From a virus: DNA of 62,847 nt. The notes under the pieces were generated by a model, which saw only the letters and a program-made list of their open reading frames with translations, was not told the origin of the DNA and made no database searches. Location of the stretch: positions 1 to 62,847 of the IMG/VR virus record IMGVR_UViG_3300035091_000011; one strand, given 5' to 3'. Positions 4,042 through 60,064 of the stretch are shown here, in pieces; positions within the stretch are counted from its first letter, which is position 1, and the number at the start of each line of letters is the position of its first letter. The translations under genes and the position numbers were made by a program.

Positions 4042-4887
4042 CTAAGTCGAAGGCGACGCTGAATGTGACGGCGACACTGAAGCTGATGGTGACAGCGACG
4101 GGCTGACCGATGCTGATGGCACCGCTGAGCCGGGGTCGAGATAGATGAAGCGGGCGAACTGACCCTCGGCGTCGGATTGCGCGCGCGTGGGATCGGTTAA
4201 GGCTGAGCCGTTGAGCGAGAGTTGGTTGAACTCGTCGCTGATCAGTCCGATTGTTTCCGCTGGATCGAGGCGATTCTTGAAGATATCCACGATCATGCGC
4301 TCGAAGTCTGAACCCACACTCGTCGCGGTGTTCTTGCCATACAGTCTCGTGTAGATCTCCGGAGCCGCAGTCTTGAATACGCCCACCTGCCGAGATGCCG
4401 CATTTACGTAACTCGCGGTGATCGGTCCAGTTACTCCACTAACATCACTGAACTGGAACACGCCTGACGCGTCCCATGTGTACTTACTCGTGGAGACTGC
4501 TACACCGGCAGATTTGAGCGAGAACCCGGAGACGCGTCCCAGTGATTGCACGCCGTAGAGGACATTGGCCTCGGGTGCGCTGGTCATCACGGCTTCGTCT
4601 GTGATGGTGGTTGTGGCAATGGTTGAGCCTTCGCCGTAGGTAGCGAGTTCAAGGTTGGTCTCCTTGAAGTCGTCCACGGTGATCGTGACATTCGCGTTCA
4701 ACTCTGTGGTGATACGCGCATCCGTCGCCCGCAGTCCTGAGTACGACTCCTTATGAGTCAGCACCTCAGTTGAGAGTCCCAGGTTGAACTCCGGCGCATT
4801 ACCAAACCACTTGAAGGGAGCGATTGGATCTCCACTGGCGTTTCGGTTGGCCCAAAAGGCCGGTCCTTGTCCCGAGAAGAGTGACAT
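4042..4887 (-). CDS. Major tail protein with Ser-Pro repeat tail
   Basis: A 281-residue protein preceding the G/GT chaperone genes and following tail-completion genes, so by synteny it is the tail tube protein. Residues 1 to about 255 look like a compact beta-rich domain (many T/V/S alternations, e.g. TTELNANVTITVDDFKETN). Residues about 256-281 switch abruptly to alternating serine, ending HSASPST. The same ending closes two other proteins of this genome. If the tail projects from the tube it would decorate every subunit along the shaft. Tube identity is inferred from position and size. Confidence 0.83.
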   Translation of the reverse strand: MSLFSGQGPAFWANRNASGDPIAPFKWFGNAPEFNLGLSTEVLTHKESYSGLRATDARITTELNANVTITVDDFKETNLELATYGEGSTIATTTITDEAVMTSAPEANVLYGVQSLGRVSGFSLKSAGVAVSTSKYTWDASGVFQFSDVSGVTGPITASYVNAASRQVGVFKTAAPEIYTRLYGKNTATSVGSDFERMIVDIFKNRLDPAETIGLISDEFNQLSLNGSALTDPTRAQSDAEGQFARFIYLDPGSAVPSASVSPSLSPSASVSPSHSASPST

Positions 4888-7186: not shown

Positions 7187-7582
7187 CTACGTACTCGGAC
7201 TCGCTGAATGACTGGGCGAAGTTGACGCGCTCGGACTGACTGATGGCGACGTGCTGCGACTGGCTGACGAACTAGCTGAACTACTCGGTGATGCGGAATG
7301 ACTCGGCGACGCAGATTGGCTCACGGTGGTTAGCGTAACCGCCTGCCACAGTCCATCTGAATCCACAACAGAGATCCCGCCCGCTGTTCGCATACAGATC
7401 GAACCCTTGCCGTAGTGACTGGCTGAGCCGTTGGTGAACAGGGAGTCAAGGACGAAGTCCGCCTCCGCTCCAATCACCTTGAACTTGCCGTCTGAATCCT
7501 GACCAAGTGCGAATGCGCCGTAGGTGCGTCCACTGTTGGAATAAGTACGCGAGAGGCGATTATTGATCTTCTTGAAGTTCAT
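7187..7582 (-). CDS. Small virion-type protein with Ser-Pro repeat tail
   Basis: A 131-residue protein. Residues 1-86 form a short globular part with many glycines. Residues about 88-131 are alternating serine (SPSHSASPS and similar) ending HSASPST, the same last seven residues as the major tail protein. It lies just after the capsid genes, so it may be a minor capsid decoration or neck protein. Function is otherwise unknown. Confidence 0.75.
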   Translation of the reverse strand: MNFKKINNRLSRTYSNSGRTYGAFALGQDSDGKFKVIGAEADFVLDSLFTNGSASHYGKGSICMRTAGGISVVDSDGLWQAVTLTTVSQSASPSHSASPSSSASSSASRSTSPSVSPSASTSPSHSASPST

Positions 7583-12623: not shown

Positions 12624-13016
12624 TCACACCGAGGGAGACGTACTGGACGACGGACTCAAACTTGCACTAGCCACATCAACCACGCCATACAGATTAAGCA
12701 ACTTGTACCTGTACTGCGCCGTCGCTGGCGTTGGGCCATTCTCGGACTCGTACACATACTGCACTGTCACCGTGCGGATCTCGAACTTGCTCCGGGACTT
12801 GACGATGAAGTTTTGATCCGAGGTGATCCATAAGTCAACTGAAGTGGAGAGCGAGGGGAAGTTAGTGACTCCTAGAATCGCGGTCTTGCTCGCTTCGTCG
12901 TCGATGCGGTAAGTGGCTGAAGTGGGAGTGACAGGTAACGCGTTCTCATCGAAGAAGGAGACGGCGATAGGGAATGCGCTGCGCTCTGAGATTTCGATGA
13001 GACATTCGTTAGCCAT
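12624..13016 (-). CDS. Small beta-rich virion-type protein with Ser-Pro tail
   Basis: A 130-residue protein. It opens ANECLIEISERSAFPIAVSFFD, then VTPTSATYRIDD, a pattern of short Ig-like beta domains found in phage structural gene clusters. Residues about 117-130 are alternating serine (ASLSPSSSTSPSV). It is one of six proteins here that carry this tract. Confidence 0.7.
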   Translation of the reverse strand: MANECLIEISERSAFPIAVSFFDENALPVTPTSATYRIDDEASKTAILGVTNFPSLSTSVDLWITSDQNFIVKSRSKFEIRTVTVQYVYESENGPTPATAQYRYKLLNLYGVVDVASASLSPSSSTSPSV

Positions 13017-13242
13017 TGGAATACGTCGCAGTTAACCCGTCCGAACCCGCAGCGATCAATTCCTGACGCGGAGCAGCCCAACCATACTGAGCCACTGTGC
13101 CATCGTCACGAGAGCGCCATTTTAGCGTTACGCCCGTTTCATCCCGCTCGGTAAAGCATTCAATATCAGTGTACTGAATTACCTCGTAGCAATATCGTAT
13201 TCGGTTTATTATTAGACTCCCTTCGCCAACTCCTCCAACCAC
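13009..13242 (-). CDS. Small hypothetical protein, start uncertain
   Basis: The frame is open upstream to 13302, but that would overlap the glycosyltransferase by 91 bases. A GTG at 13242 would give 77 residues and a 31-base overlap. Content (RYCYEVIQYTDIECF, then TVAQYGWAAPRQELIAAGS) looks like a small beta domain. It overlaps the next gene by 8 bases. Confidence 0.5.
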   Translation of the reverse strand: MVGGVGEGSLIINRIRYCYEVIQYTDIECFTERDETGVTLKWRSRDDGTVAQYGWAAPRQELIAAGSDGLTATYSNG

Positions 13243-15008
13243 TCTCTCACTCGCCCGTAGATTAGCGGCCAGCCAGCAATCTGTCCATCTGTTTCTTCCC
13301 ACCCCTCCGCGAACTTCTTGTTCCTGAAGCTCTCAACGGAGAAGTGCGGCGTCGTCAACGTCTGCCCATGTCCAGTGATGTCGATATTAGGGAATTCCGA
13401 TTGCCAGTTGGAGACCTTTTCATCTCCGAACTTCCCACGCGTACCGGGTTCATAGGCCATGCGCTTCACGTCGAACACTCCACCATTCGCCTCGATCAAC
13501 TCCACGCGTTTGCGGTAGTGGTCCAGCAAGAGTTGACGGTTGGCGCAAATCCCACTCACTTGCTGGAGATTCGCCGTGCGAACCGCGTGACCGTCGGAAT
13601 AGCGCACTCGCCAGACGTTAGTATTGTAAAAGAAGGTATCGTCTCTCGGTGGAGTGAACTGGAAATGCGACGGGTGGTAAAACATGTCACTCTCACATAG
13701 GAACACGTAATCCGCCGTCGATCTCTCCAGCCCAGCGAGAACCTGATAGTGCATCGTACCGCCTGATTTCTCTCTATCGAGCACCACTGTCCAGTCGCCG
13801 AAGTCGGTTCGCTGGAGGGTTACGCAGCCTATCTCATGTCCGTTGGTTGCGTGCTTGAGATTGTTGCGGGCGGCGAGTTCGAGAGTTGGATCGTGGGAGT
13901 TGCAACTGTAGTACAGTGCGCAAGCCGTTGGTTTGCGTTGAATAGCCGGAGCGTAAGGAATCGACTTCCCCTGACGACGATAGAATTCGTCACCGGCTTG
14001 CTTCACCTGCTGGTAGACGGGGTTGTTATCGGTCCAATCGGGAACAGGTGCGAACTTCTCGATTAACCAGCTAAGAGGATAGACCTGCCTGGGCCAGAGG
14101 TTCTTTAACCAAAGTTCCTTACCGCGAGCCTTGGCCCGCTCCTTCCTGCCACCGTCAGCATATGGAAATCCAATGCCTCCAACCCTGAAGAAATGAGCGA
14201 ACCACGTATTCTGGTTAACCTTCAGTTCACCTCCTGATAAATGCGACTTGCAGGCGATCTCCGTTCCCATATCGCCCCATGAACCAAAAGATTCTTCACA
14301 AGGTTCAATCTCCCAATACCTGTCTCGCCTCATGGCCCAGCATGCTCCCAGCAGGCTCATAGTGTCATGTATAGGCTGTTGAGTCTCGGGACGAAACGGA
14401 ACATTATTCCGCTTACAGTATTTTTCATCGGAGGCATACGCGCCGTGATACTGGAAGTCCAAGTTAGTATCGAACCTCCACGAGTGCGTATAAGCCCGTC
14501 TCCTCCCCTCCTGTCCATCACGCGGCTTCCAGATCTTGACCTGTTTAAGATAACGTGAACCACATTGCTCGCACTTGGGAGGCTTGGGAGACTGGTCCTT
14601 GGTCCATGAGCAGCGTTTACAGCGCCATTCGAATACTTGCAAGTTATACTGTCCAGCCACAACCGTCCACTTCGGTTCGAATGTCGCCAGTAGTTTCTCG
14701 TCGAAGTTGGAATCTAAGCTACAATGTGCATCGAGCTTCATCACGTACTCACCAGTTGCAACTCGCGCTGCTTCATTGGTTGCAGCTCTCTGACCTATCG
14801 ACTTGCGATGCTGAATGACCGTGAGGCGGGAGTTGATGGGGAGTGGAGTGAGTGGCCACTGGGTGTCGTAGCCGTCGAGGACTGCGATCACTTCGGTCTT
14901 AGCTGAAGTATTAGCGAGGACATTGGTAATCGTCTCATGCAGGAGATCGATGTCGTAGTAGAATTCGTTCCTTGCGGGCACGAGCACTGAGAGGTGGTAA
15001 CGGCTCAT
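13212..15008 (-). CDS. GT2-type glycosyltransferase, two domains, with inserted zinc ribbon
   Basis: A 598-residue protein. The N-terminal GT-A fold starts LSVLVPARNE; VLDGYD (44-49) would bind the nucleotide sugar, and D93-A-H95 in KLDAHCS is a metal-binding D-x-H. A zinc ribbon is inserted at C130/C133/C146/C149. E239..GSWGDMGTEIA followed by SGG and W..HFFR resembles the acceptor region of GT2 enzymes such as polypeptide GalNAc-transferases. From about residue 360 a second domain has FLCESDMFYHP, a possible second GT-like site. It probably transfers sugar to a phage protein; the Ser-rich tracts in this genome are the obvious candidate acceptors. The acceptor is inference. Confidence 0.78.
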   Translation of the reverse strand: MSRYHLSVLVPARNEFYYDIDLLHETITNVLANTSAKTEVIAVLDGYDTQWPLTPLPINSRLTVIQHRKSIGQRAATNEAARVATGEYVMKLDAHCSLDSNFDEKLLATFEPKWTVVAGQYNLQVFEWRCKRCSWTKDQSPKPPKCEQCGSRYLKQVKIWKPRDGQEGRRRAYTHSWRFDTNLDFQYHGAYASDEKYCKRNNVPFRPETQQPIHDTMSLLGACWAMRRDRYWEIEPCEESFGSWGDMGTEIACKSHLSGGELKVNQNTWFAHFFRVGGIGFPYADGGRKERAKARGKELWLKNLWPRQVYPLSWLIEKFAPVPDWTDNNPVYQQVKQAGDEFYRRQGKSIPYAPAIQRKPTACALYYSCNSHDPTLELAARNNLKHATNGHEIGCVTLQRTDFGDWTVVLDREKSGGTMHYQVLAGLERSTADYVFLCESDMFYHPSHFQFTPPRDDTFFYNTNVWRVRYSDGHAVRTANLQQVSGICANRQLLLDHYRKRVELIEANGGVFDVKRMAYEPGTRGKFGDEKVSNWQSEFPNIDITGHGQTLTTPHFSVESFRNKKFAEGWEETDGQIAGWPLIYGRVREWLEELAKGV

Positions 15009-16097: not shown

Positions 16098-16315
16098 TAC
16101 CAACTCACTCTCGTGTCAGGAATTAAAACATCTGAAAGATAGACATTGAATCCGCGCCTTCTTAATTCCGAGATAACCGCATCGCTAGGCCATCCATCAA
16201 AGCGAATAAACCTCCAGTTACGAGTCGCGGCCCTTTCTACCAAGGCTAGTACGTCTTCGACAGTCTTAGTGTTACGTTCAAATAGTCGCAGTGCATCGTC
16301 TGCTGATTCAATCAT
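16097..16315 (-). CDS. Small hypothetical protein
   Basis: Start chosen at ATG 16315, which overlaps the upstream stop as ATGA; an in-frame start at 16327 is possible. About 72 residues: helix (ADDALRLFERNTKTVEDVLALVERA) then alternating beta/alpha (WRFIRFDGWPSDAVISELRRRGFNVYLSDV), resembling a small nucleotide-type alpha/beta fold. No family recognised. Confidence 0.6.
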   Translation of the reverse strand: MIESADDALRLFERNTKTVEDVLALVERAATRNWRFIRFDGWPSDAVISELRRRGFNVYLSDVLIPDTRVSW

Positions 16316-18453
16316 GGCTTCACCCACATGAAATCTGTTGATTTACGTCCTTCGAAGATGTACCAGATCGGAATCCGATGCGCGTTCGTATACGCCTGCA
16401 CAGCTTCAACTACTCCACCACCAATCCAGCGCTTCTGGTCCAGTGCGTAATAGTCGTCGCCGGAGACGATGCCACCTGAGCGCACTCGCTTGGACCATTC
16501 GATGAGATCCTGTATGACGAAGTCGAAAAGATGATTGCCGTCGATATAACAGAAGTCCAACGAGTCCTCCTTTACATCACGTACAGCATTCATTGAGTAA
16601 TCAACGATCATCCGCGCAGCGTAACTGTTCGAGGTTTGAGTCCTGCGATAAGCTTCATTGTACGCAAACTCATGCTTCTCCTTCGACTTCCCCTGTGGGT
16701 TATCGCTGTAGTGATGCCACGGATCAACCAGCAGTAACTCGCATTCAGGGTTCGCCTTCAGTAAAACTTCACTGTACTTTCCTTCCGCCACCCCAATCTC
16801 CGCCCCGCGCTTGAATCCGAGTTCAGCGAACAGTGCAGCCAGATCGTTACGGTGAAAGTCGCGCAACTCGATTGGCATTGGCCCACGGAGACGTTGAGGA
16901 GAGATGGAGAATTTGCGAATGAGGTAGTCGTTGAGGGCGGTAGCGGACATCGGCTGTCGCTGCAATTTTTCAGCCTCGGCAGTAATCTTTTCGTAATCAC
17001 GCACCGCTCCGCACTTACACTGCGGTACTGACTGACCTTCCACCGCCTGAAAGTCATGGACGTGATCGCTATCAACGCTGTCGTGAACCTCGTAGTGAAT
17101 TTCAGGAGACTCAATAACATCGCGCATACCTACTTCTACTACCCCTTGCGGCCATCGTTGGTTAGCTTTATCCTTCCACGTCGCAGGAACGTCTCGTCGT
17201 GCCTGCCCGATAATGAGCCACTCCTTTTCAATTCGCTCTATCGTTATTTCATCGCCGCCGTAGGAGTAAGTCAACAGCAGTACTTTCTTCTTCCCTCGGA
17301 ACGGATTCTGATCAGAGCAGAGCATTGAGTTATTCACGACGATGTCTAGCGAGTCGTTCTTAACCAACGAACGTACTCTTTCGACAACGTCGATGGAGTG
17401 CTCGCTGAAGGGCGGCATGCTGCCGAGAATGCCGTAGCGGGCGGAGAGGATACGCAGCCCGGAATCTTGGCCGTCTGTCTCCGTAACCACCGCTGCTCCT
17501 GTTGCCATTCCGTTATCTCGCACCACCGTCTCCACTCCTGATCCAACTGCTCTTGGCTTACGTTCGGCATACAACACCTCCTCCCAATTCTCCGGCCAGC
17601 TCGGCACCGGCCAGAAGTGCTCGATGAGCCATTTGAACGGCAATGTCTGCTTATTCCACGCTTCGTTCCAGATCCACTTCATCGTCTGATTGCGACCTTG
17701 TACCAGTGCAGATTCAGCGAGACGATAGCCACGCCCGTACTTAGATCCTTTGTGAAGGTGAAGGTATTTACACTTCTTGTTAACTTTCACCTGACCGCCG
17801 CTGAGCCAGCACTTGAGGCCGAGTTCCTGAAACTCGCACCAGAAGGGGCCGTAGCTCGCCTCGTCCATCAGTTCCAGTCGCTGAAAGTAGCTCACGTGCA
17901 TGAACCAGCCGGAACCTTGTGATGACATCTCATCGTCAACGAGAACGTTGTTTCGCTCCAGCGCACGCTCAGGCCAGATCTTTCCATTCAGCCCCGGCCC
18001 ACCGAAGTCGTTGGGGTCGTCGGGGAAGGAGAGATAGTGGTAGTCGATGTAGAGTTTATGCGTGTCAGTGGGGCACCAGTTTTCAGGATCGAGTCGTCCC
18101 CGTCGCGGGACTACAATCCAGTCCTCATCACAGTCAGCCTTGAGTACCTCGTCGAATCCTTCACTGAACGAGCAATGACCATCGAACTTAGCGATGAACT
18201 TCGCCCCACGGGAGATCGCGCTGGCTACACCTTTGTTGATCGAACCGCGCATTCCAATCGACTGTCCATTGTGAATCGTATGCAACCTCGGATGACGCGC
18301 GGTGACTTCCTTCCAGTTTCCCGGCCACTTATCGGAATCGAGCACGGCGATAACTTCAGTCTCCTCGTCGCGCGCGTTGCGGAAGATGTCGTCGATGGTC
18401 GGGGTTAGGAAGCGCTCGTCACGCGAGGGGATGATGATTGAGAGTTTAGACAC
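16312..18453 (-). CDS. GT2 glycosyltransferase fused to a class I methyltransferase
   Basis: A 713-residue protein starting at GTG. Residues 1-250: GT-A fold with LSIIIPSRDE, VLDSD (38-41 region), D91-G-H93 and the acceptor region YGPFWCEFQELGLKCWLSGGQVKVNKKCKYLHLHKG. Residues about 330-450: a central alpha/beta domain I cannot name. Residues about 463-485 hold H-x-H plus C-x-C that may bind metal. Residues about 548-713: SAM-dependent methyltransferase (AEIGVAEGKYSEVLL, LLVDPW, DFCYIDGNHLFD, GGIVSGDDY), of the Methyltransf_24 type. It would add a sugar and then methylate it or another group. It overlaps both neighbours. Confidence 0.82.
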   Translation of the reverse strand: MSKLSIIIPSRDERFLTPTIDDIFRNARDEETEVIAVLDSDKWPGNWKEVTARHPRLHTIHNGQSIGMRGSINKGVASAISRGAKFIAKFDGHCSFSEGFDEVLKADCDEDWIVVPRRGRLDPENWCPTDTHKLYIDYHYLSFPDDPNDFGGPGLNGKIWPERALERNNVLVDDEMSSQGSGWFMHVSYFQRLELMDEASYGPFWCEFQELGLKCWLSGGQVKVNKKCKYLHLHKGSKYGRGYRLAESALVQGRNQTMKWIWNEAWNKQTLPFKWLIEHFWPVPSWPENWEEVLYAERKPRAVGSGVETVVRDNGMATGAAVVTETDGQDSGLRILSARYGILGSMPPFSEHSIDVVERVRSLVKNDSLDIVVNNSMLCSDQNPFRGKKKVLLLTYSYGGDEITIERIEKEWLIIGQARRDVPATWKDKANQRWPQGVVEVGMRDVIESPEIHYEVHDSVDSDHVHDFQAVEGQSVPQCKCGAVRDYEKITAEAEKLQRQPMSATALNDYLIRKFSISPQRLRGPMPIELRDFHRNDLAALFAELGFKRGAEIGVAEGKYSEVLLKANPECELLLVDPWHHYSDNPQGKSKEKHEFAYNEAYRRTQTSNSYAARMIVDYSMNAVRDVKEDSLDFCYIDGNHLFDFVIQDLIEWSKRVRSGGIVSGDDYYALDQKRWIGGGVVEAVQAYTNAHRIPIWYIFEGRKSTDFMWVKP

Positions 18454-18804: not shown

Positions 18805-21800
18805 TTAGTTGTCAATTGTGAATTTCACCCCTGTCACTCTTGCTACAAATATCACTGAGGGTTGCTTCGGAGTGAACTCTACACTCGATTGACGCACATC
18901 GAAGTAGGCCGCAACTGCGATGGGAATTGGACCACTGGGAGAGGAACTGGTGGAAGGGGATTCGGATGACGAGGGGCTGATTGAGGCGCTGGAAGATTCG
19001 GATGGTGAGAGTGAGAGGGATGGGCTGGCGGAGGGACTGAGACTGGCGGACGGAGAGATGCTAGCCGATTCACTGGAGGACGGACTAATCGAGGGAGACT
19101 CCGATGAACTCGGACTTGGAGAGGCTGATTCGCTACCGCTAGGGGAGACTGACGAAGATGGCGAGGGAGTTGGGGATTCACTCGCGCTCGGACTGAGGGA
19201 GAGCGACTCACTTGCACTCGGGGAAGTTGACGCTGAACCACTGGAACTTGGACTAAGACTGCTACTTGGACTGGTCGTCGCACTCTCACTTGCAGATGGT
19301 GAGACGGATGCACTGGGACTGAGTGAAGGGGAAGTTGAGGTACTTGGACTGAGCGAAGATGAAGGAGAAACACTCGGACTCTCCGAAGCTGACGGCGAGA
19401 CTGAACTGCTGGGGGATAACGAGGGTGAGGTGGAAGAACTGGGGGAAATGGACGAGGACGGAGAGGCCGAGAGTGAGGAGGATGAGGAAGGAGATAGAGA
19501 GGCGCTGGGACTGATACTGGGACTAGTTGACGACGACGGACTTTGACTACTGCTTGGAGAGACGCTCGGACTCGTCGAGGAGCTTGGGGAGACGGATGGA
19601 GAGGGGCTGATAGATGCTGAAGCTGACGAACTGGGAGACTGGGAGGCGCTGGGACTGAGCGAGGGGCTGACACTGGACGATGGCGATACTGAGGGCGAGG
19701 GGGAGATGCTCGGACTGGTGGAACTGGATGGTGAAACGGATGAACTCGGGCTGATGCTCGGGCTAACTGAACTCGACGGGGAAGGGGAGCTTGACGGGCT
19801 GAGCGAGGGGCTTACGCTGCTGCTGGGAGACGCGCTGGATGACGGACTGAGCGACGGAGACGGGCTAACTGAAGGTGAAGCGCTGAATGAAGGGGAAACA
19901 CTTGCCGACGGACTCACACTTGGAGATGCGCTGGCACTTGGGGAGACGCTGGCTGAAGGGGACTGCGATAACGATGCCGAGGACGAAGGACTAAGACTGG
20001 CACTCGGGCTGAGACTTGGTGACGCTGAGCTTGACGGGCTCAGGGAACTGCTCGGGGAGATGGAAGGGGAAGCGCTACTCGATGGTGACGCGGACGAGCT
20101 GGGAGAGATCGATGGAGAGACGCTGGATGAAGGACTCGCACTGCTGCTGGGAGAGAGAGAGGGACTAACACTCGCCGATGGAGATGCTGAGCTTGAAGGG
20201 GAGAGGCTTGGAGATGTCGAACTGCTCGGACTGAGACTGCTGGACGGTGAGAGGGACGGACTCGCACTGCTGGAAGGTGATAACGAACCCGACGGAGAGA
20301 TGCTGGGGGACGCTGAGCTTGAAGGGCTGGTTGAGGCGCTTGGCGACACACTGGGCGATGCACTGCTACTAGGACTGAGCGAGGGGGATGGTGAGATCGA
20401 TGGCGATACTGAACTGCTCGGACTGGGTGATGAACTCGGGGAGACACTTGGCGAGGCACTGCTGCTCGGAGACTGAGACGCGCTCGGGCTGATGCTGGGC
20501 GATTCGCTACTGCTGGGTGAAGTACTCGCACTTGGGGATACACTCGGAGAGATCGAAGTCGAAGGCGAGACACTTGCACTTGGACTCAGACTCGGACTCT
20601 CGCTTGAGCTTGGGGAGGTGCTCGGGCTGGGACTGATGCTGGGTGAGGTGGATGACGAAGGACTGACGGATGGAGAAGGGGACACGCTTGGACTAACAGA
20701 CGAACTCGGGCTGAGCGAGGAACTTGGACTAATACTCGGAGACACGGAAGCTGACGGACTTACACTGGCACTCGGTGAGATCGAAGGCGACACAGATGAC
20801 GACGGTGATCCACTACTGCTCGGACTTACGCTTGGCGAGACAGAACTTGACGGGCTGAGACTGGGACTGGGTGAGACACTAGGGCTGACCGAAGTTGAAG
20901 GAGACAAGCTCGCACTCGGACTCACGCTGGGAGAGGGTGAACTGGAGGGGCTGACGGATGCACTGGGAGACAGGGATGGTGAAGAACTAGATGAAGGAGA
21001 TCCAGCAGTGATACTTCCACCGCCGAAGTCGTCCAGTTGCACGCCATTGTCGCTGAAGGTGCGAACGCCGATGAACCCGCCGCCGGTGTAGGTGGAATCA
21101 GTCCTCGTTGCGATCTCACCCCATGAGCCAGCGCTGGGTTTGTACTGGATCGAGAAAGAGTTCCCCTGAACGGAGACGCCGATGGAGTCGCCTGCTGCCA
21201 TACCCTGAGAGATCGATGCGCCAACTTGCGTGTCGAGCGATCCAGCCACCATCGTCCAGAGTTCAACCACGCTGTCTGAAGTCGCAAACAGGAAGTAACA
21301 ATTCCCGGTGTTGCCGGTTTGCATGCGGAAGGTGATGCCGAAGCGCGTGAAGGGAGCGTTGAGCGTGGCGAGGGTGATGTAAGCTTCCTGATTGGCGGTG
21401 AAGGAGGCAACGGACCAGTAGTCGGCGCGATGGCCGAAGGAAGCGTTGAGCTTATTCGACAGGACATTCATCCCCGTGCCGAGATCGGTCCAATTCGACG
21501 AGGGTGGTGGGCCTTCGTTGGCACGGTTAAAGTTGTCGAGGATTGAGGTGGTAGGGAAGGTTGATGGTGTTGAAGGGGAAGCGCTACTACTGGGCGAGGT
21601 GGATGCTGAGGGTGAGAGGCTCGGAGAAGGGCTGACCGAGGGGGAGGTTGACGAGGAGGGAGAAATCGAACTACTCGGTGAGGGAGAGCGGCTGATACTG
21701 GACGACGGGGAGACGGAGGGCGAAACAGATGCGCTTGGGGATACCGACGCACTTGGACTCGGACTGGAGATCGGAATGGCGAGGATCTCAATTAATCCAG

Positions 21801-23031
21801 TCGCAGTTGGACTCGCAGCCGAGAGTGTGAAGGAGTCGCTGGCGGAACTGCCGAGAGCGTTGTAGGTTTGATCCGCCGTTGAGATGCCTAGCCCATCAGT
21901 ACGTTCATTCCACCCACTCGGAGAGGTGAAAGTAGGGGTGCTGTCTGCGATACAAGTGGACTGGACGAGGGAGCGGTTGGCGATGCGGGATAGCGCGTCC
22001 CAGGTGGAAGTGGTGGAGGACGCATTGAGCCTGACATTCACCGCGCCAATCGGACTGGTCTGCTTGGTGTTGTAGAAGGTGCAGATTTGCGCTGAGAGTT
22101 CCGCTGATCCAGTGCGATTCACCTGACGATTGAGCGTGGCTGAAGCATAAGCCCACCACTTCGAGACGGTTGATCCCCCTCCACTGGTGGTGGTTTGCCA
22201 GGTGCCGATCAGGGTCCACGCGCCGTCGGTCATAGAGAGGGTGGTGGAACCGGAGCCTTCCACGGTAATGACGAGCAGATCCTTGTTGCCGTTGACATCG
22301 GAGTTAGTTGTACCCGTGGGGAGGGAGGGAGTGACGGTCGTGCCAGTGACAGTGGCTTGCGATGCTGAGCGATAGTAGGGGTAGTCAGCGGAAGGGACGG
22401 CGAAGATCCCTGCTACCCAGCGCACACCACTGGTAGGAGAGGCGTCCTGATTGGCGAGGGAGGTGTTTTGATCGGCGACTGTCTTGTTCGCCCCGTTCCC
22501 GACGAGGGTGCCGCTGATGATGATCTCCTCGTCCTGGGTGTAGCCGGAAGGGTCGGGGGCGTTGGTTGCGGCGCGCGAGAAGTAGATATGCAGCGCCAGC
22601 ATCTCCGGGGCGATGGTGGTGATAGTTGAGGGTCGGACAGGATTCGCAGTTCCAGTGGAGACGCTGCGCGCCAACCATGAAGCGAGAGTCATCACCCCTT
22701 CCTCGCTTGCGCCGTCGATGGCGTAAGCGATTGCCATGCGATTGACAGTTGCGCCGAGGGTGAATGCAGGGTTGGCTAAAGGAAGGGAATCGCCTGAGAG
22801 TACGCGTCGATAGAAGTAAGTGCCGAGGAGACCGTTGGCGGAGGTGCCTACCTGGGCTTGCTGGATGCGGCTCCAGCCGGTAGGGTTCCCGGTCCAGAGA
22901 GTGTTGCCGGTGTTGCCGACTGCGATAATGATGATATCACCGGCGGCATGGGTTGGGAGCGTGACAGTGATCGTAGACCCAGTGCCGCCGGGGTTGGTCT
23001 GGGTCGAGTCACGGATGGTTGGAGTAGCCAC
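18805..23031 (-). CDS. Giant Ser-Pro repeat surface protein (1408 aa)
   Basis: Domain order: residues 1 to about 418, Thr/Ser-rich beta domains (GDIIIIAVGNTGNTLWTG and a second similar copy around 230-410); 419-490, first alternating-serine tract; about 493-673, a lectin-like beta sandwich (SILDNFNRANEGPPPSSNWT, then YTGGGFIGVRTFSDNGVQLDDF); about 675-1367, an alternating-serine tract of some 690 residues; last 41 residues a short beta module (AAYFDVRQSSVEFTPKQPSV). The long tract has a 16-residue super-repeat. I infer a long fibre or mucin-like stalk on the virion, placed between terminase-linked structural genes and the glycosyltransferases. Confidence 0.8.
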   Translation of the reverse strand: MATPTIRDSTQTNPGGTGSTITVTLPTHAAGDIIIIAVGNTGNTLWTGNPTGWSRIQQAQVGTSANGLLGTYFYRRVLSGDSLPLANPAFTLGATVNRMAIAYAIDGASEEGVMTLASWLARSVSTGTANPVRPSTITTIAPEMLALHIYFSRAATNAPDPSGYTQDEEIIISGTLVGNGANKTVADQNTSLANQDASPTSGVRWVAGIFAVPSADYPYYRSASQATVTGTTVTPSLPTGTTNSDVNGNKDLLVITVEGSGSTTLSMTDGAWTLIGTWQTTTSGGGSTVSKWWAYASATLNRQVNRTGSAELSAQICTFYNTKQTSPIGAVNVRLNASSTTSTWDALSRIANRSLVQSTCIADSTPTFTSPSGWNERTDGLGISTADQTYNALGSSASDSFTLSAASPTATGLIEILAIPISSPSPSASVSPSASVSPSVSPSSSISRSPSPSSSISPSSSTSPSVSPSPSLSPSASTSPSSSASPSTPSTFPTTSILDNFNRANEGPPPSSNWTDLGTGMNVLSNKLNASFGHRADYWSVASFTANQEAYITLATLNAPFTRFGITFRMQTGNTGNCYFLFATSDSVVELWTMVAGSLDTQVGASISQGMAAGDSIGVSVQGNSFSIQYKPSAGSWGEIATRTDSTYTGGGFIGVRTFSDNGVQLDDFGGGSITAGSPSSSSSPSLSPSASVSPSSSPSPSVSPSASLSPSTSVSPSVSPSPSLSPSSSVSPSVSPSSSGSPSSSVSPSISPSASVSPSASVSPSISPSSSLSPSSSVSPSVSPSPSVSPSSSTSPSISPSPSTSPSSSESPSLSPSASVSPSTSISPSVSPSASTSPSSSESPSISPSASQSPSSSASPSVSPSSSPSPSSSVSPSISPSPSLSPSSSASPSVSPSASTSPSSSASPSISPSGSLSPSSSASPSLSPSSSLSPSSSTSPSLSPSSSASPSASVSPSLSPSSSASPSSSVSPSISPSSSASPSSSASPSISPSSSLSPSSSASPSLSPSASLSPSSSASLSQSPSASVSPSASASPSVSPSASVSPSFSASPSVSPSPSLSPSSSASPSSSVSPSLSPSSSPSPSSSVSPSISPSSSVSPSSSTSPSISPSPSVSPSSSVSPSLSPSASQSPSSSASASISPSPSVSPSSSTSPSVSPSSSQSPSSSTSPSISPSASLSPSSSSSLSASPSSSISPSSSTSPSLSPSSSVSPSASESPSVSPSSSLSPSTSTSPSLSPSASVSPSASESATTSPSSSLSPSSSGSASTSPSASESLSLSPSASESPTPSPSSSVSPSGSESASPSPSSSESPSISPSSSESASISPSASLSPSASPSLSLSPSESSSASISPSSSESPSTSSSPSGPIPIAVAAYFDVRQSSVEFTPKQPSVIFVARVTGVKFTIDN
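18936..21002 (-). repeat. Long alternating-serine coding repeat
   Basis: About 2.07 kb encoding (S-x)n with x mostly P, S, A, V, T, L, I. A frequent unit is 16 residues (48 bases), e.g. SPSSSASPSVSPSAST. All six serine codons are mixed, so DNA copies have diverged while the protein pattern is kept. Parts of the antisense strand are open by composition only. Confidence 0.9.
21562..21775 (-). repeat. Short alternating-serine coding repeat in the giant protein
   Basis: Encodes about 70 residues of the same S-x pattern (residues 419-490 of the 1408-residue protein), linking the N-terminal beta domains to the lectin-like domain. Confidence 0.85.
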
Positions 23032-55076: not shown

Positions 55077-57194
55077 CTAAGTTGAGGGACTGCTACTATG
55101 TGACGGGCTAAGGGAGGGTGATGGTGATTGCGACTGAGAGGGACTGGGACTGAGCGAAATGCTGGACGAAGGCGACGCTGAGCTACTTGGGCTGAGCGAG
55201 TGCGAGATCGACGCCGAGGGAGAAAGTGACGAGACTCCAGTCCCTTCAGGCGTGTTGAGCAGCTCGCGGAATCTCCATGCCACTTGGACCACATTGTCCG
55301 TTTGCCATGCGAGTTCGAGTTGATCTGCGTCTAAGCGACAATACTTGAGCAGGGAGACGAAGCGGAGATTTGCTGTCGTCGGCACTGCGGCATCGAGTCG
55401 CAATGTCTCATTCTCTCCTGCGAGTTCAAACGCAATCACTCGTCGAAACTTCATCGTCCCGTCCCAGTAGACGAATGCGAGATCCCTCCTCGGCTCAGCC
55501 AGTGCGTACGCATCCGAATAATTCGTATCTCTCACCGTGATCTGATGTTCAGGAATGTTGATGAACAGGATCTCGAAATCCTCCTGCATTGTCGCTACCC
55601 AGAGGAGTTGCAGCGCTCCTACTCGCTCATAATACCACCCCAGGAACGCGGAGATGAGATCTATTCCCTGGATCGTCATGCGATAGGAGAATGTCTCACT
55701 GGCAGCGATGGTGTCGGACTCAAATGACATCAACCCGGTGTCGAAGTCCACGTCTGATCCCGCTCGTTCCAGCTCGTACTCCCGCTGTTCACTCCAGTCG
55801 TTCGACTGCCACGCGCGGCCATCGAACACTTCTACATCTCGATACTTGATGGTTGGAGTGAATGTCGTAATTCGATTCGGAATGAGTTGCTCATCCTCGG
55901 GCAGCAGTCGCGCGGTGAGGTTCAACTCCTCAACGACATCGCTATGACCTTTGATGCTGAGTTGAGGTTGCAGCAGCGCGCGTCTCACGGGATACACCGA
56001 GGAGAGATAAGCTGCGTAGGAGTGGACGAGTGGCTCATGCTCAACTGAGTTCGGATTCAGTGACGTAATCAACCTCTCCTCCCAGTGCGAGATCACTCCA
56101 CTGCCATCCACTTCTCTGAATCCGATCCATGATCCGATCTCGTAGTCCTTGTATGCGGTGGTGATCGGCGTGAGAGTAGTTGAGACATCCAACGACTCCA
56201 GCAGTCTCTCCGCGTACTGTCTGATTGGGATGAACCACTTGCGATTCTGGTTAGCCCAAAGAAGTGCGCGCAACTTACGCCGTTCGCTCTGGTTCTTCAG
56301 CACTTGGACGAACTCCAACTCTCGTCTCGGCGTAGGTCGTTCACTCACTGATTCTTCAACTCCACTCACAGCTTGTGACAGTCCAGTGCGAAAGCTAATG
56401 CGCTCAATCAGCGCCTCAGTCCAGTTGTGACGGAAGGGGAAGGAGATCGGATCGGGTTCGAACGATGACAGGAGGATCGCGGTTGGGTTCGCGTCCGATC
56501 TCCCGTTGAGAAACGTCGCCCCGACCGCAGCTTCGTATATCGTCACACCCTGTTCAGCGGTGAGCGCGGTAGGGACAATCGTCGGCTCATCCAATCCCTG
56601 ACTCGGCCAGAGGTTTTGATTCTGCGCACTCCCAAAGAACCAGGCGTTGCTACTGCCGACGTTAATATCCGCAGTGGGGAGATCTGAGCGTTGAGCTACG
56701 AGATCCGCGTTCCAGTAGAGCAGCATAGTTGCGCTGTTGCGGACTCCCATCGCCATGCCGAACGTGTCTCGCACCGGAGGAGTGTAGTTGAGTTCGTAAT
56801 CCGTGCCACTGATATTGAGCGTGAACCTGACATCGCCTCCTCCCGGATCGAGCGCAAGCCAATTCCCTCCGCCCAGTCCGATCTGTCCATTGCGTGTGAT
56901 GAGGTGCGACTGCTGCGACGAGTCACTACTGATGTAGCCCCAAGCGATCCACGTGAACGTAGAGCGAATATCCGACTGTGGCGCGTCCGCAATCAGCACC
57001 TTCCCCACTGAGCCGCTCATCGCAAACGACGCTGGATCGGTGAGGATGGGCGACGCTACGCCAAACGTCGGCGTGTAGAGGGTTCCATCTGTGCCATAAG
57101 ATGACGAGTCCACTAGTACCGTGCCGCCGACTTCGTTGAGTCGGAAGAACAGCACTGGGTTGAAGCTGAGGATTATGTCTTGATAACTTGCCAT
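55077..57194 (-). CDS. Tail-tip protein with LamG-like head and Ser-Pro tail
   Basis: 705 residues. Residues about 1-220 form a LamG/concanavalin-like sandwich (VLFFRLNEVGGTVLVDSSS..GTDGTLY). The middle is a beta/alpha tail-type domain with ISFRTGLSQ and RRLLEFVQVLKNQSERR. Residues about 655-705 are alternating serine ending HSSSPST. Its start shares a base with the upstream stop (TAATG). Likely a distal tail or receptor-binding structural protein. Confidence 0.75.
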   Translation of the reverse strand: MASYQDIILSFNPVLFFRLNEVGGTVLVDSSSYGTDGTLYTPTFGVASPILTDPASFAMSGSVGKVLIADAPQSDIRSTFTWIAWGYISSDSSQQSHLITRNGQIGLGGGNWLALDPGGGDVRFTLNISGTDYELNYTPPVRDTFGMAMGVRNSATMLLYWNADLVAQRSDLPTADINVGSSNAWFFGSAQNQNLWPSQGLDEPTIVPTALTAEQGVTIYEAAVGATFLNGRSDANPTAILLSSFEPDPISFPFRHNWTEALIERISFRTGLSQAVSGVEESVSERPTPRRELEFVQVLKNQSERRKLRALLWANQNRKWFIPIRQYAERLLESLDVSTTLTPITTAYKDYEIGSWIGFREVDGSGVISHWEERLITSLNPNSVEHEPLVHSYAAYLSSVYPVRRALLQPQLSIKGHSDVVEELNLTARLLPEDEQLIPNRITTFTPTIKYRDVEVFDGRAWQSNDWSEQREYELERAGSDVDFDTGLMSFESDTIAASETFSYRMTIQGIDLISAFLGWYYERVGALQLLWVATMQEDFEILFINIPEHQITVRDTNYSDAYALAEPRRDLAFVYWDGTMKFRRVIAFELAGENETLRLDAAVPTTANLRFVSLLKYCRLDADQLELAWQTDNVVQVAWRFRELLNTPEGTGVSSLSPSASISHSLSPSSSASPSSSISLSPSPSQSQSPSPSLSPSHSSSPST

Positions 57195-60064
57195 TAGGCT
57201 AAGGTAATTCCATACTTATCTGCAAGATACTGTCGCACACTTGCTCTATTCGTGCTGCCGATGTCTACGTTATAAGTAACTCGCTCGGCAATATCACTGG
57301 TCAAGCCATTAGAACCAATTCCCGCAGTAAAGGACGTTGACGCAGATCCGCGTGCAGTAGAAGCGGTTGTGTCGTTGTTAACCTTGATGTTGATGTTCGT
57401 CCCATCGTACCAACATTCAACGATGTACCAGACGTTTTGCGTGTAGGTCGATGTGCTGCCAAGGAATGTGCCGTCTGATCCCCCGCTGCGCTGCCATACT
57501 CCAAACCTGTTACTGCCGTCATTCTTCAAATTAATGCCGCCCTGACCGCCGCCATAGGAGAACAGAAATGGTGCGGTGTTTTGATTCGATCCCCCATTTG
57601 CCTGCGGACGAATCACGATAAACGTGGTCCATGCGGTAGTTGAGTAGATGGTTGAAAGAGTATTACTAAAAACGTACTGATCTGTTGAGTCGGCAAATCT
57701 CAGGTAGGGCTTGCCATTTGCTCCACCTGTTTTGAATAGAGGCTTATTTGCGGTTGTGCTCTGCGTCCACTTGCGCGTGCCAGTGATTTGATCAAGCCAG
57801 TCGGTAACTGTATCGCCATCATTAAAGCCGCTCAGCGAGGACTGATCCGCCATCACCCACTCGGTAATACCGCTCACGTCGTCTGGCGCAAACGGCGGCG
57901 CGCTGGGAGAGATGCTGGAACTGGGTGATTGTGACGCACTGGTAGAGTGCGAAGGACTAGCTGAAGCGCTAGGGCTGACGGAGGCTGAGATTGAAGTTGA
58001 AGGTGATGGACTTGCTGAGCTGCTGGAGCTCGGCGACACACTCGAACTCGTACTCGCTGAAGCACTTGATGAAGGTGATTGCGAGGCGCTCGGTGATAGA
58101 GATGACGAGGGTGATTGCGAACTGGATGGACTCACAGAAGCACTCGGACTCACTGAGGGGCTTGCTGAGTGAGATGGACTGACACTGGCCGAAGGACTTA
58201 AACTCGGACTTCCAATCGCACTCACATCGATCGTCGCGCAAACCTTCACTCCATTGGTGGCTGTACGTGTTGAGAACGTCTGCACACAGAACTGATATGG
58301 ACCTACGGCCAACGCGGGCCAGGTAAAGGTATCCTTGTTATCGTTGTCAGGCCATAAGTACGCAGGGGATAAAGCCTGGACGCCTCCGGGTTCAGTCACG
58401 TACAACCGAGCATATTGCCCACCTGGAGCGTAAGCACCAAAAATAATACCTCCGGTAATCGACGCCTGAAATTGATTGGTATTCGTTAGTATTAGATCTA
58501 CTTTTAGTCCGTCTGGGTCAAACTCTGCTTCATTCCAACTCGCACTGGGAGGCGCAGTGTCCAGTCCAGTTGCGGGATCTTCGTGCTGCGTTCCAGATGG
58601 TTCGCCAAAGGTGCGCAACCCGGTGGAGAACTGGTCCTCGATCAGTACCAGCCTATAGTCACGCTCATCCGGCCCGTTGGGAGTGATCGCCAGCACGCGC
58701 ATGACTATGGAGAATGTCGGTGACTCCCACTCGAATAGCAATACCTCTCCCCTGTACGTCAGCCTCCCAAACGAGGCAAACACGAAGCACTCCAGTGGGG
58801 CGCGGGGGAGTGAGATCGCCCTCCCGTCTCTCGTCGCAATCACATTCGCTTGCTCGAAATCAGCCACACCAAGGAAAGTCTTCGTCTCAGGAACCGTGCG
58901 CCCATCCTGGATCAGTTGATTCGCCGGATCGATGTAGAGCGCCTTCCTCCCTTTGAAGTTGTTGCCCTGATCGGGGAACTCGACCTGGATCTTGTTCTTC
59001 GTATCCTCGTAAGTTCCCGGTGTGAAGCGTTCGACTCGGGTGATATTGTCCTGACTCAGCACGCGCAGTGAGTTGAACGAGTAGTCGCGTCGAATGAGCC
59101 TAATAGTCAGCCCGAGCGAAGGGGACGGCTCTGGTACTGCGTCGATCTGCGCGAGCACGTCCTGCACTACCTGTTGAGGAGATGCTCCACTGGTTTCGAT
59201 CACCCCTGACCAGCCATTGTTCTCGTTGTAGAGATCCTCCGCTACTGAGCGCCAGTTGTTGAGATTCAACTCCTCCACTGGAACTCTCGCACCGTACTCA
59301 AGCGACGTACTCCATTCGTAGATCGCTTCCATCGGGTTCATATGCCGCCCGATCTTATTAAACCTTGTAGCGAGATTGTCGGGTTGACGACGACAAGTGA
59401 TCTTCCACTGTTTGAACCTCGGAATCGACCCCACTCCACCGGCTGCAAAGTATCCCGACTCAGTAAACCCACTCGGGCCGCGCTTCACGAGGGCTGCGAT
59501 TCCACGCAAGCTCGGCGTCTTGTTCGGCGCGGTAGTGAGGAGAGATTCGAGGTAGGAGTTGGTATGATCGGTGTAGTTCCCGCGCGTGAGATCACACCAT
59601 GCGTACTCGCCGCCTTCACCCGGAGGCTGGTCCCCACCCCAGGCTTGCGGGTCGTCAATGAGAAATCCCCCGCCGGAGTTATCACTTCCGACTGTCGCAG
59701 CAAACACTGGTCTATCGTTGATCGTAATGCGCTCAACGTGTACATCCGGCCCCCAGCACAGCGGGAACATCTCGCCGATATAGGAGCGGTAAGCGACGGT
59801 GATCGTATCGAGCAGGAATGCGAATGACCCTAACCAGATGTAATCAGTCCAGTGCGAATCTCGCTCCACTGCGCGCTGCTTGTAATCCCCGTACCACATG
59901 CGCGCCGGAGTGAGTTCAAAGGTGCCGCCACCGTAGGGGATGGGACGAAGTTCATCTGGCTGGTTGTTCTTTTGGAGATCCTCAAATGTGGTACGCTTGG
60001 GACGTTGACGAGTGACTTCACCCAGGATCATTTGTCCGACGAACAGGAGTGCTTGCCAGAACAT
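57194..60064 (-). CDS. Tail-tip/hub protein with Ser-Pro linker and LamG-like end
   Basis: 956 residues. N-terminal membrane-like opening (FWQALLFVGQMILG) then a long hub-like region (PIPYGGGTFELTPARMWYGDYKQRA, QVEFPDQGNNFKGRKALYIDPANQL, ATRDGRAISLPRAPLECFVF) typical of central tail-tip attachment proteins. Residues 618-722 are alternating serine. The last 230 residues are a LamG-like sandwich (WLDQITGTRKWTQSTTANKPLF..GKPYLRFADSTDQYV). It would present a binding domain on a flexible stalk. Confidence 0.82.
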   Translation of the reverse strand: MFWQALLFVGQMILGEVTRQRPKRTTFEDLQKNNQPDELRPIPYGGGTFELTPARMWYGDYKQRAVERDSHWTDYIWLGSFAFLLDTITVAYRSYIGEMFPLCWGPDVHVERITINDRPVFAATVGSDNSGGGFLIDDPQAWGGDQPPGEGGEYAWCDLTRGNYTDHTNSYLESLLTTAPNKTPSLRGIAALVKRGPSGFTESGYFAAGGVGSIPRFKQWKITCRRQPDNLATRFNKIGRHMNPMEAIYEWSTSLEYGARVPVEELNLNNWRSVAEDLYNENNGWSGVIETSGASPQQVVQDVLAQIDAVPEPSPSLGLTIRLIRRDYSFNSLRVLSQDNITRVERFTPGTYEDTKNKIQVEFPDQGNNFKGRKALYIDPANQLIQDGRTVPETKTFLGVADFEQANVIATRDGRAISLPRAPLECFVFASFGRLTYRGEVLLFEWESPTFSIVMRVLAITPNGPDERDYRLVLIEDQFSTGLRTFGEPSGTQHEDPATGLDTAPPSASWNEAEFDPDGLKVDLILTNTNQFQASITGGIIFGAYAPGGQYARLYVTEPGGVQALSPAYLWPDNDNKDTFTWPALAVGPYQFCVQTFSTRTATNGVKVCATIDVSAIGSPSLSPSASVSPSHSASPSVSPSASVSPSSSQSPSSSLSPSASQSPSSSASASTSSSVSPSSSSSASPSPSTSISASVSPSASASPSHSTSASQSPSSSISPSAPPFAPDDVSGITEWVMADQSSLSGFNDGDTVTDWLDQITGTRKWTQSTTANKPLFKTGGANGKPYLRFADSTDQYVFSNTLSTIYSTTAWTTFIVIRPQANGGSNQNTAPFLFSYGGGQGGINLKNDGSNRFGVWQRSGGSDGTFLGSTSTYTQNVWYIVECWYDGTNINIKVNNDTTASTARGSASTSFTAGIGSNGLTSDIAERVTYNVDIGSTNRASVRQYLADKYGITLA
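57898..58212 (-). repeat. Alternating-serine linker in tail-tip gene
   Basis: Encodes residues about 618-722 of the 956-residue protein with the same S-x pattern (SPSLSPSASVSPSHSASPS). Confidence 0.85.

What the first reader, a model, noticed from the sequence alone, without database searches (positions are those of the whole stretch)
18936..21002. Near-perfect serine alternation with a 16-residue super-repeat
The long tract has Ser at every second position over about 690 residues, with P, S, A, V, T, L or I between. Many segments follow a 16-residue unit. In extended conformation all Ser would face one side and Pro/Val/Ala the other. Both TCN and AGY serine codons are mixed, which needs multiple base changes, so selection on the protein pattern is likely while recombination between DNA copies is reduced.
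Basis: partly seen in the sequence, partly recalled or inferred. Interest (0 to 1): 0.75.

Follow-up and report, generated by a model that had tools for sequence, protein, structure and literature searches.

The report
Phage mucin-like tags with dedicated glycosyltransferases
An uncultivated phage carries long protein tracts with serine at every second position, also attached as tags to several of its tail proteins, and they almost always occur next to enzymes shaped like the animal enzymes that start mucin sugar coats, so these virus particles (and some ultra-small bacteria with the same gene set) probably wear a mucin-like sugar coat.

Summary
Observation confirmed: minus-strand ORF 18805-23031 (1408 aa) has Ser at 342 of 344 alternate positions over 688 aa, mixed TCN/AGY codons, a 16-residue period and no DNA tandem repeat. 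It is one of six proteins in this phage with such segments: SPS tails end the major tail protein, a tail-assembly protein and two small structural-region proteins; one segment lies inside a tail protein. In 8-9 relatives the Ser stay fixed while codons switch between TCN and AGY. Two neighbouring genes encode glycosyltransferases (GTs); one folds like polypeptide GalNAc-transferases (pLDDT 93; the 29 best PDB entries are all GalNAc-Ts, Z 23-26). Tract and GT go together: 64/79 GT-bearing viral loci have a tract versus 0/120 random viral loci; most long tract-selected records carry the GT; GT-free relatives lack the tract; always same strand. Patescibacteria carry a cellular version, sometimes with tatC. 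Best reading: a cassette for mucin-like O-glycosylation of virion (and cell-surface) Ser/Pro tracts. Catalysis, sugar and host are inferred, not shown. No cultured phage record matched the GT.

The parts
18937..21000 (-). long alternating-Ser (SPSxS) tract, residues 678-1365
18805..23031 (-). whole ORF, 1408 aa, probable virion fibre/appendage protein lying in the structural region
   Evidence: no Pfam match
21571..21765 (-). first, short SPS tract, residues 423-487
21001..21570 (-). globular domain between the two tracts (residues 488-677, 'DNFNRANEGP...'); similar domains recur between tracts in L005
   Evidence: no sequence match in PDB
18808..18936 (-). short C-terminal segment after the tract, recognisably similar in L005 and L006
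13212..15008 (-). GT1: glycosyltransferase with GalNAc-transferase-like GT-A domain (res 1-330): D93xH95, W244G, E250, H272, plus a 4-Cys insertion (C130, C133, C146, C149)
16312..18453 (-). GT2: second glycosyltransferase of the same superfamily fused to a C-terminal Methyltransf_24 domain (Pfam residues 552-668)
4042..4887 (-). major tail protein (phrog_807); last 24 aa are an SPS tail ending SPSHSASPST (4045-4116)
7187..7582 (-). small protein of the structural region, function unknown; last 44 aa are an SPS tail ending SPSHSASPST (7190-7321)
12624..13016 (-). small protein of the structural region, function unknown; last 14 aa are an SPS tail (12627-12668)
55077..57194 (-). tail assembly protein (phrog_1082); last 50 aa are an SPS tail (55080-55229)
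57194..60064 (-). tail protein (phrog_1101); internal SPS segment, residues 619-722 (57899-58210)

Best explanation
The tract is a mucin-like acceptor domain for O-glycosylation, and the phage brings the enzymes for it. GT1 probably attaches a first sugar to the regularly spaced Ser (Thr) of SPSxS sequences, as polypeptide GalNAc-transferases do; GT2 probably adds or varies a further sugar and its methyltransferase domain probably methylates the product. Long tracts become stiff, extended sugar-coated stalks between the globular domains of the fibre-like protein; short C-terminal tails put sugars on the tail tube and other virion proteins. A related cassette in Patescibacteria would make a cell-surface glycoprotein, in some lineages exported by Tat. 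SHOWN: tract, tags, codon-independent conservation of Ser, predicted fold of GT1, gene linkage. INFERRED: catalytic activity, sugar, that the tract is the acceptor, role of the coat (stalk, protection or imitation of a host surface), and a patescibacterial host for the window's phage.
For: (1) Fold: GT1 model pLDDT 93; the 29 best PDB entries are all polypeptide GalNAc-transferases, Z 23.0-25.6 over about 270 residues, best other GT-A fold Z 19.3; profile search E 4e-15 to GALNT1; DxH and the later His are invariant in 59 sequences. (2) GT to tract: 71 of 80 GT loci have a tract once two records are read further, 22/22 with full flanks, 158 tracts on the GT's strand and 0 opposite; tract of 20 or more Ser in 64/79 versus 0/120 loci chosen by an unrelated pattern, p 5e-38. 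(3) Tract to GT, chosen blind to GT: 17/21 records of 20 kb or more carry it; of 45 control records only one has a strong match, and that record has a tract too. (4) Capsid relatives: 8/8 with GT have tracts, 3/3 without GT have none, p 0.006. (5) The methyltransferase is in 68/79 GT viral loci, 35/48 cellular loci, 0/69 controls, always on the same strand. (6) Tags with invariant Ser on three structural-region proteins across 7-9 relatives. (7) At least 9 viral/cellular changes forced by well-supported branches of the GT tree, so the linkage is not one inherited event.
Against: No activity, glycan or virion proteomics data. Some long records carry a tract but no such GT and no other GT2 (G018, G025); host enzymes could serve them. 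A few GT records show no tract in the parts read (G084, G085, G086, G090, G091), though in four of them the GT sits within about 2.2 kb of a contig end. GT1 is only about 20% identical to GalNAc-Ts over aligned residues, has no recognised ricin-type lectin domain, and its WGxxGxE differs from the animal WGGEN motif. The GT could act on other targets. Some loci are near-copies, so counts are not all independent.
Confidence: 0.72

Rival explanations
1. The tract is an unmodified, disordered or extended Pro/Ser linker or stalk that only needs to be flexible and soluble; the neighbouring glycosyltransferases act on other targets (host surface, cell wall).
For: Ser/Pro linkers between domains are common (general knowledge); a few tract-bearing records have no GT.
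Against: A mere linker needs no strict Ser at every second residue kept through TCN/AGY switches, nor extreme C-terminal tails with nothing behind them, nor near-obligate company of one GT family and methyltransferase on the same strand.
Confidence: 0.15
2. The tract is glycosylated, but GT1 is not the first enzyme: it extends sugars, while a host enzyme attaches the first one.
For: Two GTs of one superfamily per record, as SdgB and SdgA act in two steps on staphylococcal Ser-Asp repeats (PMC3794999); tract records without GT exist.
Against: The fold of GT1 matches polypeptide-acceptor enzymes better than sugar-chain enzymes such as chondroitin polymerase (Z 17.9).
Confidence: 0.1
3. Low-complexity DNA that spreads by slippage or recombination, with no selected protein function.
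For: Tract length varies widely among relatives; short DNA words are somewhat more repeated than in synonymous shuffles.
Against: Almost no tandem DNA repeat, codon identity between units at the level set by composition, longest exact repeat 16 nt as in shuffles, invariant Ser with switched codons in relatives.
Confidence: 0.03

Closest known systems
Staphylococcal Ser-Asp repeat (SDR) adhesins with SdgA/SdgB
   Same: Ser at every second position, long stalk, two dedicated GTs encoded next to the repeat protein, stepwise glycosylation of the repeats (PMC3794999); weak compositional matches to ClfA/SdrC models
   Different: X is Pro/Ala/Val/Leu/Ile instead of Asp; the GT here has a GalNAc-transferase-like fold (SdgA/B are closest to each other and then TarM by PMC3794999); the tags sit on virion proteins; no cell-wall anchor in the window protein
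Serine-rich repeat glycoproteins (GspB, Fap1; SRRPs)
   Same: Ser-rich repeats O-glycosylated by dedicated enzymes (PMC6973325, PMC7948813)
   Different: exported by accessory Sec; here virion proteins, and in some bacterial relatives tatC is the neighbour
Polypeptide GalNAc-transferases (CAZy GT27) and mucins
   Same: GT-A fold, DxH, later His, Ser/Thr/Pro-rich acceptor candidates
   Different: bacterial/viral, about 20% identity, 4-Cys insertion, no recognised lectin domain, donor sugar unknown
Mycobacteriophage virion glycosylation (Che8, Corndog, Myrna; Freeman et al. 2023, as cited in PMC12363180)
   Same: phage-encoded GTs put sugars on capsid and tail tube proteins
   Different: no GT match in any of 50,697 phage records, so the enzymes are not recognisable relatives by sequence; here the acceptors are alternating-Ser tracts and tails

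Membership tests
CAZy GT27 / polypeptide GalNAc-transferase | GT-A fold closest to GalNAc-Ts | tested here: met
   Z 23.0-25.6 for 29 GalNAc-T entries, next other protein 19.3
CAZy GT27 / polypeptide GalNAc-transferase | metal-binding DxH and later His | tested here: met
   D93, H95, H272 in 59/59
CAZy GT27 / polypeptide GalNAc-transferase | WGGEN-type motif | tested here: inconclusive
   WGxxGxE: W, G and last E align, the middle differs
CAZy GT27 / polypeptide GalNAc-transferase | C-terminal ricin-type lectin domain | tested here: inconclusive
   no Pfam match in the window GT1 C-terminal part, but that part was not folded well
CAZy GT27 / polypeptide GalNAc-transferase | transfers GalNAc from UDP-GalNAc to Ser/Thr of peptides | not testable with these tools
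   needs an enzyme assay
Serine-rich repeat glycoprotein (SRRP) | Ser-rich repeats | tested here: met
Serine-rich repeat glycoprotein (SRRP) | signal peptide for accessory Sec and LPXTG anchor | tested here: not met
   neither is in the ORF as read; the ORF lies in a phage structural region
MSCRAMM / SDR adhesin | Ser-Asp repeats and matching NCBIfam model above cut-off | tested here: not met
   no Asp in the tract; ClfA 44 bits versus cut-off 1150
Phage virion-glycosylation system | GT genes in the phage genome | tested here: met
   terminase, capsid and tail genes in the same record
Phage virion-glycosylation system | sugars found on virion proteins | not testable with these tools
   needs virion mass spectrometry

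The most novel reading that the evidence does not exclude
A mobile, previously undescribed prokaryotic mucin-type glycosylation cassette (GalNAc-transferase-like GT, second GT, methyltransferase, alternating-Ser acceptor proteins) shared by Patescibacteria and phages, in which the phage coats its tail and fibres with the same kind of sugar-covered surface as its host.
Probability: 0.45. Interest if true: 0.88.

Novelty: new variant of a known kind. Interest (0 to 1): 0.74.

Why it matters
It would be a protein O-glycosylation system with a GalNAc-transferase-like enzyme and mucin-like acceptors in phages and ultra-small bacteria, where my searches of open papers and cultured phage records found no description. 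It gives a simple, testable enzyme-substrate pair, a marker for a large set of uncultivated phages, a candidate for the surface chemistry of Patescibacteria, and possibly a relative from outside eukaryotes for the enzyme family that starts animal mucin glycans.

Tried and rejected
Slippage or uniform codons: rejected. Active codon diversification against repeats: not supported, exact repeats are not rarer than in synonymous shuffles. 16-mer as a functional unit: not general. Genes on the + strand over the tract: antisense shadows. First structure prediction of full GT1 with 3 sequences failed (pLDDT 32). Globular domain between tracts: no PDB sequence match. Homologues in cultured phages of GT1, a patescibacterial GT, the L242 N-terminal part and the capsid: none in 50,697 records. 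Prophage origin of the bacterial cassettes: no PF05065 capsid in 14 such genomes, which lowers but does not exclude it. Prevalence in the phylum: besides the query genome 2 of 191 sampled genomes carry it, so it is sparse. L112/G030, a tract record, was put among the controls by mistake and is left out of the counts.

Full report
CHECK. ORF 18805-23031 on the minus strand (1408 aa) contains the reported tract at residues 678-1365 (18937-21000). Ser occupies 342 of 344 alternate positions, Thr the other two. Shuffles of the same composition reach an alternate-Ser run of 23 at most; the observed run is 287. The 16-residue period is real (non-Ser positions 0.54 versus 0.21 in shuffles) and holds one register for about 24 units. 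All six Ser codons are mixed. The DNA shows almost no tandem repeat, codon identity between units is at the level set by composition (58 versus 64), and the longest exact repeat is 16 nt, as in synonymous shuffles; 9- and 12-mers are somewhat commoner than in shuffles. So the period lives in the protein, not in recent DNA copies.

IT IS NOT ALONE. Six proteins of this phage carry such segments: the ORF above (with a second short tract at residues 423-487); the major tail protein 4042-4887 (phrog_807, E 3e-48), a tail assembly protein 55077-57194 (phrog_1082) and two small proteins of the structural region, 7187-7582 and 12624-13016, all four at the extreme C-terminus; and internally a tail protein 57194-60064 (phrog_1101). 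Three end in SPSHSxSPST. Relatives found by the capsid protein carry the same tails on the three short proteins. In those tails the alternate Ser are fixed (one exception in one sequence) while 6 of 7 and 8 of 11 Ser columns contain both TCN and AGY codons: strong selection for Ser at alternate positions, with Pro fixed at some of the others and the rest free.

THE NEIGHBOURS. Downstream on the same strand lie GT1 (13212-15008) and GT2 fused to a Methyltransf_24 domain (16312-18453). GT1 hits GALNT10 and GALNT1 chains by plain phmmer (E 2e-4 and 1e-3). A profile of 59 relatives (A5) gives E 4e-15 to GALNT1. The AlphaFold2 model of its catalytic domain has pLDDT 93, and the 29 best PDB entries are polypeptide GalNAc-transferases at Z 23.0-25.6; the next other GT-A protein has 19.3. 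DxH and the later His are invariant; four Cys form an insertion (the second Cys falls in a gap in 9 of 59).

CO-OCCURRENCE. A scan of viral contigs with a GT alignment gave 80 loci; 69 have a tract, all 22 with full flanks do, and 158 tracts lie on the GT strand, none on the other. Further reading found tracts in two more records. Against 120 loci selected by an unrelated Walker-type pattern the count for tracts of 20 or more Ser is 64/79 versus 0/120, p 5e-38. Loci chosen by a tract pattern without regard to GT lie in 38 records, 19 with the GT, 17 of 21 among records of at least 20 kb. Of 45 control records without a tract near the pattern match, one had a strong GT match, and it proved to have a tract elsewhere; one weak match of 30 bits looks like a generic GT. 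Among capsid relatives 8 of 8 with GT have tracts and 3 of 3 without GT (whole record searched) have none in the DNA held. The methyltransferase is in 68/79 GT viral loci and 0/69 controls. A terminase model rings in 26 of 44 GT records, so many of these are clearly phages. Some loci are near-copies of each other, so the p values are indicative.

BACTERIAL RELATIVES. A scan of 84,980 genomes gave 48 loci, nearly all from Patescibacteria MAGs; 28 have a tract in the held DNA, and tracts of 20 or more Ser lie downstream of the strong GT in all 27 cases. L244 lies on a chromosome-level record (CP066693.1). In L244, L242, L235 and L221 a tatC gene follows the tract protein (PF00902 E 1e-41 in L244); tatC lies in 10 of 48 cellular loci and in no viral locus. 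No PF05065 capsid gene was found in 14 such genomes. The trait is sparse in the phylum. The GT tree needs 12 viral/cellular changes, at least 9 forced by well-supported branches. MAG binning can err, and a patescibacterial host for the window's own phage is an inference.

MECHANISM. The best reading is stepwise O-glycosylation of SPSxS sequences by GT1 then GT2, with methylation, giving sugar-coated stalks and tails. The closest worked example is the staphylococcal Ser-Asp repeat system with SdgB then SdgA next to the sdr genes (PMC3794999). Phage-encoded glycosylation of capsid and tail tube is known in mycobacteriophages (Freeman et al. 2023 as cited in PMC12363180). Work on Patescibacteria phages reports lectin-like and nucleotide-sugar genes but, in the passages searched, no such tract or enzyme (PMC12911398). 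Activity, sugar and role remain untested.

LIMITS. Papers under other licences and preprints were not searched. Tracts were defined by alternation, so the purity of Ser in the survey of 110 tracts is partly by construction; the codon mixing (108 of 110) and the varied periods are not.

Noticed in passing
L244:16907-17638, L242:18321-19052, L235:19728-20483, L221:12070-12825: tatC follows the alternating-Ser protein gene in several Patescibacteria, suggesting export by Tat after glycosylation in the cytoplasm.
   Followed up: partly
13212-15008 (residues 130-149): GT1 has a conserved CxxC...CxxC insertion, possibly zinc-binding, not known to me from animal GalNAc-transferases.
   Followed up: no
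18920-19546, 19706-20476, 20492-21091: Long + strand ORFs rich in D/E/G/L are the antisense reading of the Ser tract, an annotation trap.
   Followed up: yes
L005:2452-6717 versus window 18805-23031: The N-terminal and inter-tract globular domains of the fibre-like protein are swapped or duplicated between relatives while the tracts and C-terminal segment stay.
   Followed up: partly
L191 (G018) and L207 (G025): Phage records with long alternating-Ser tracts but no GT of this family and no other GT2; they may rely on host enzymes or be incomplete.
   Followed up: partly
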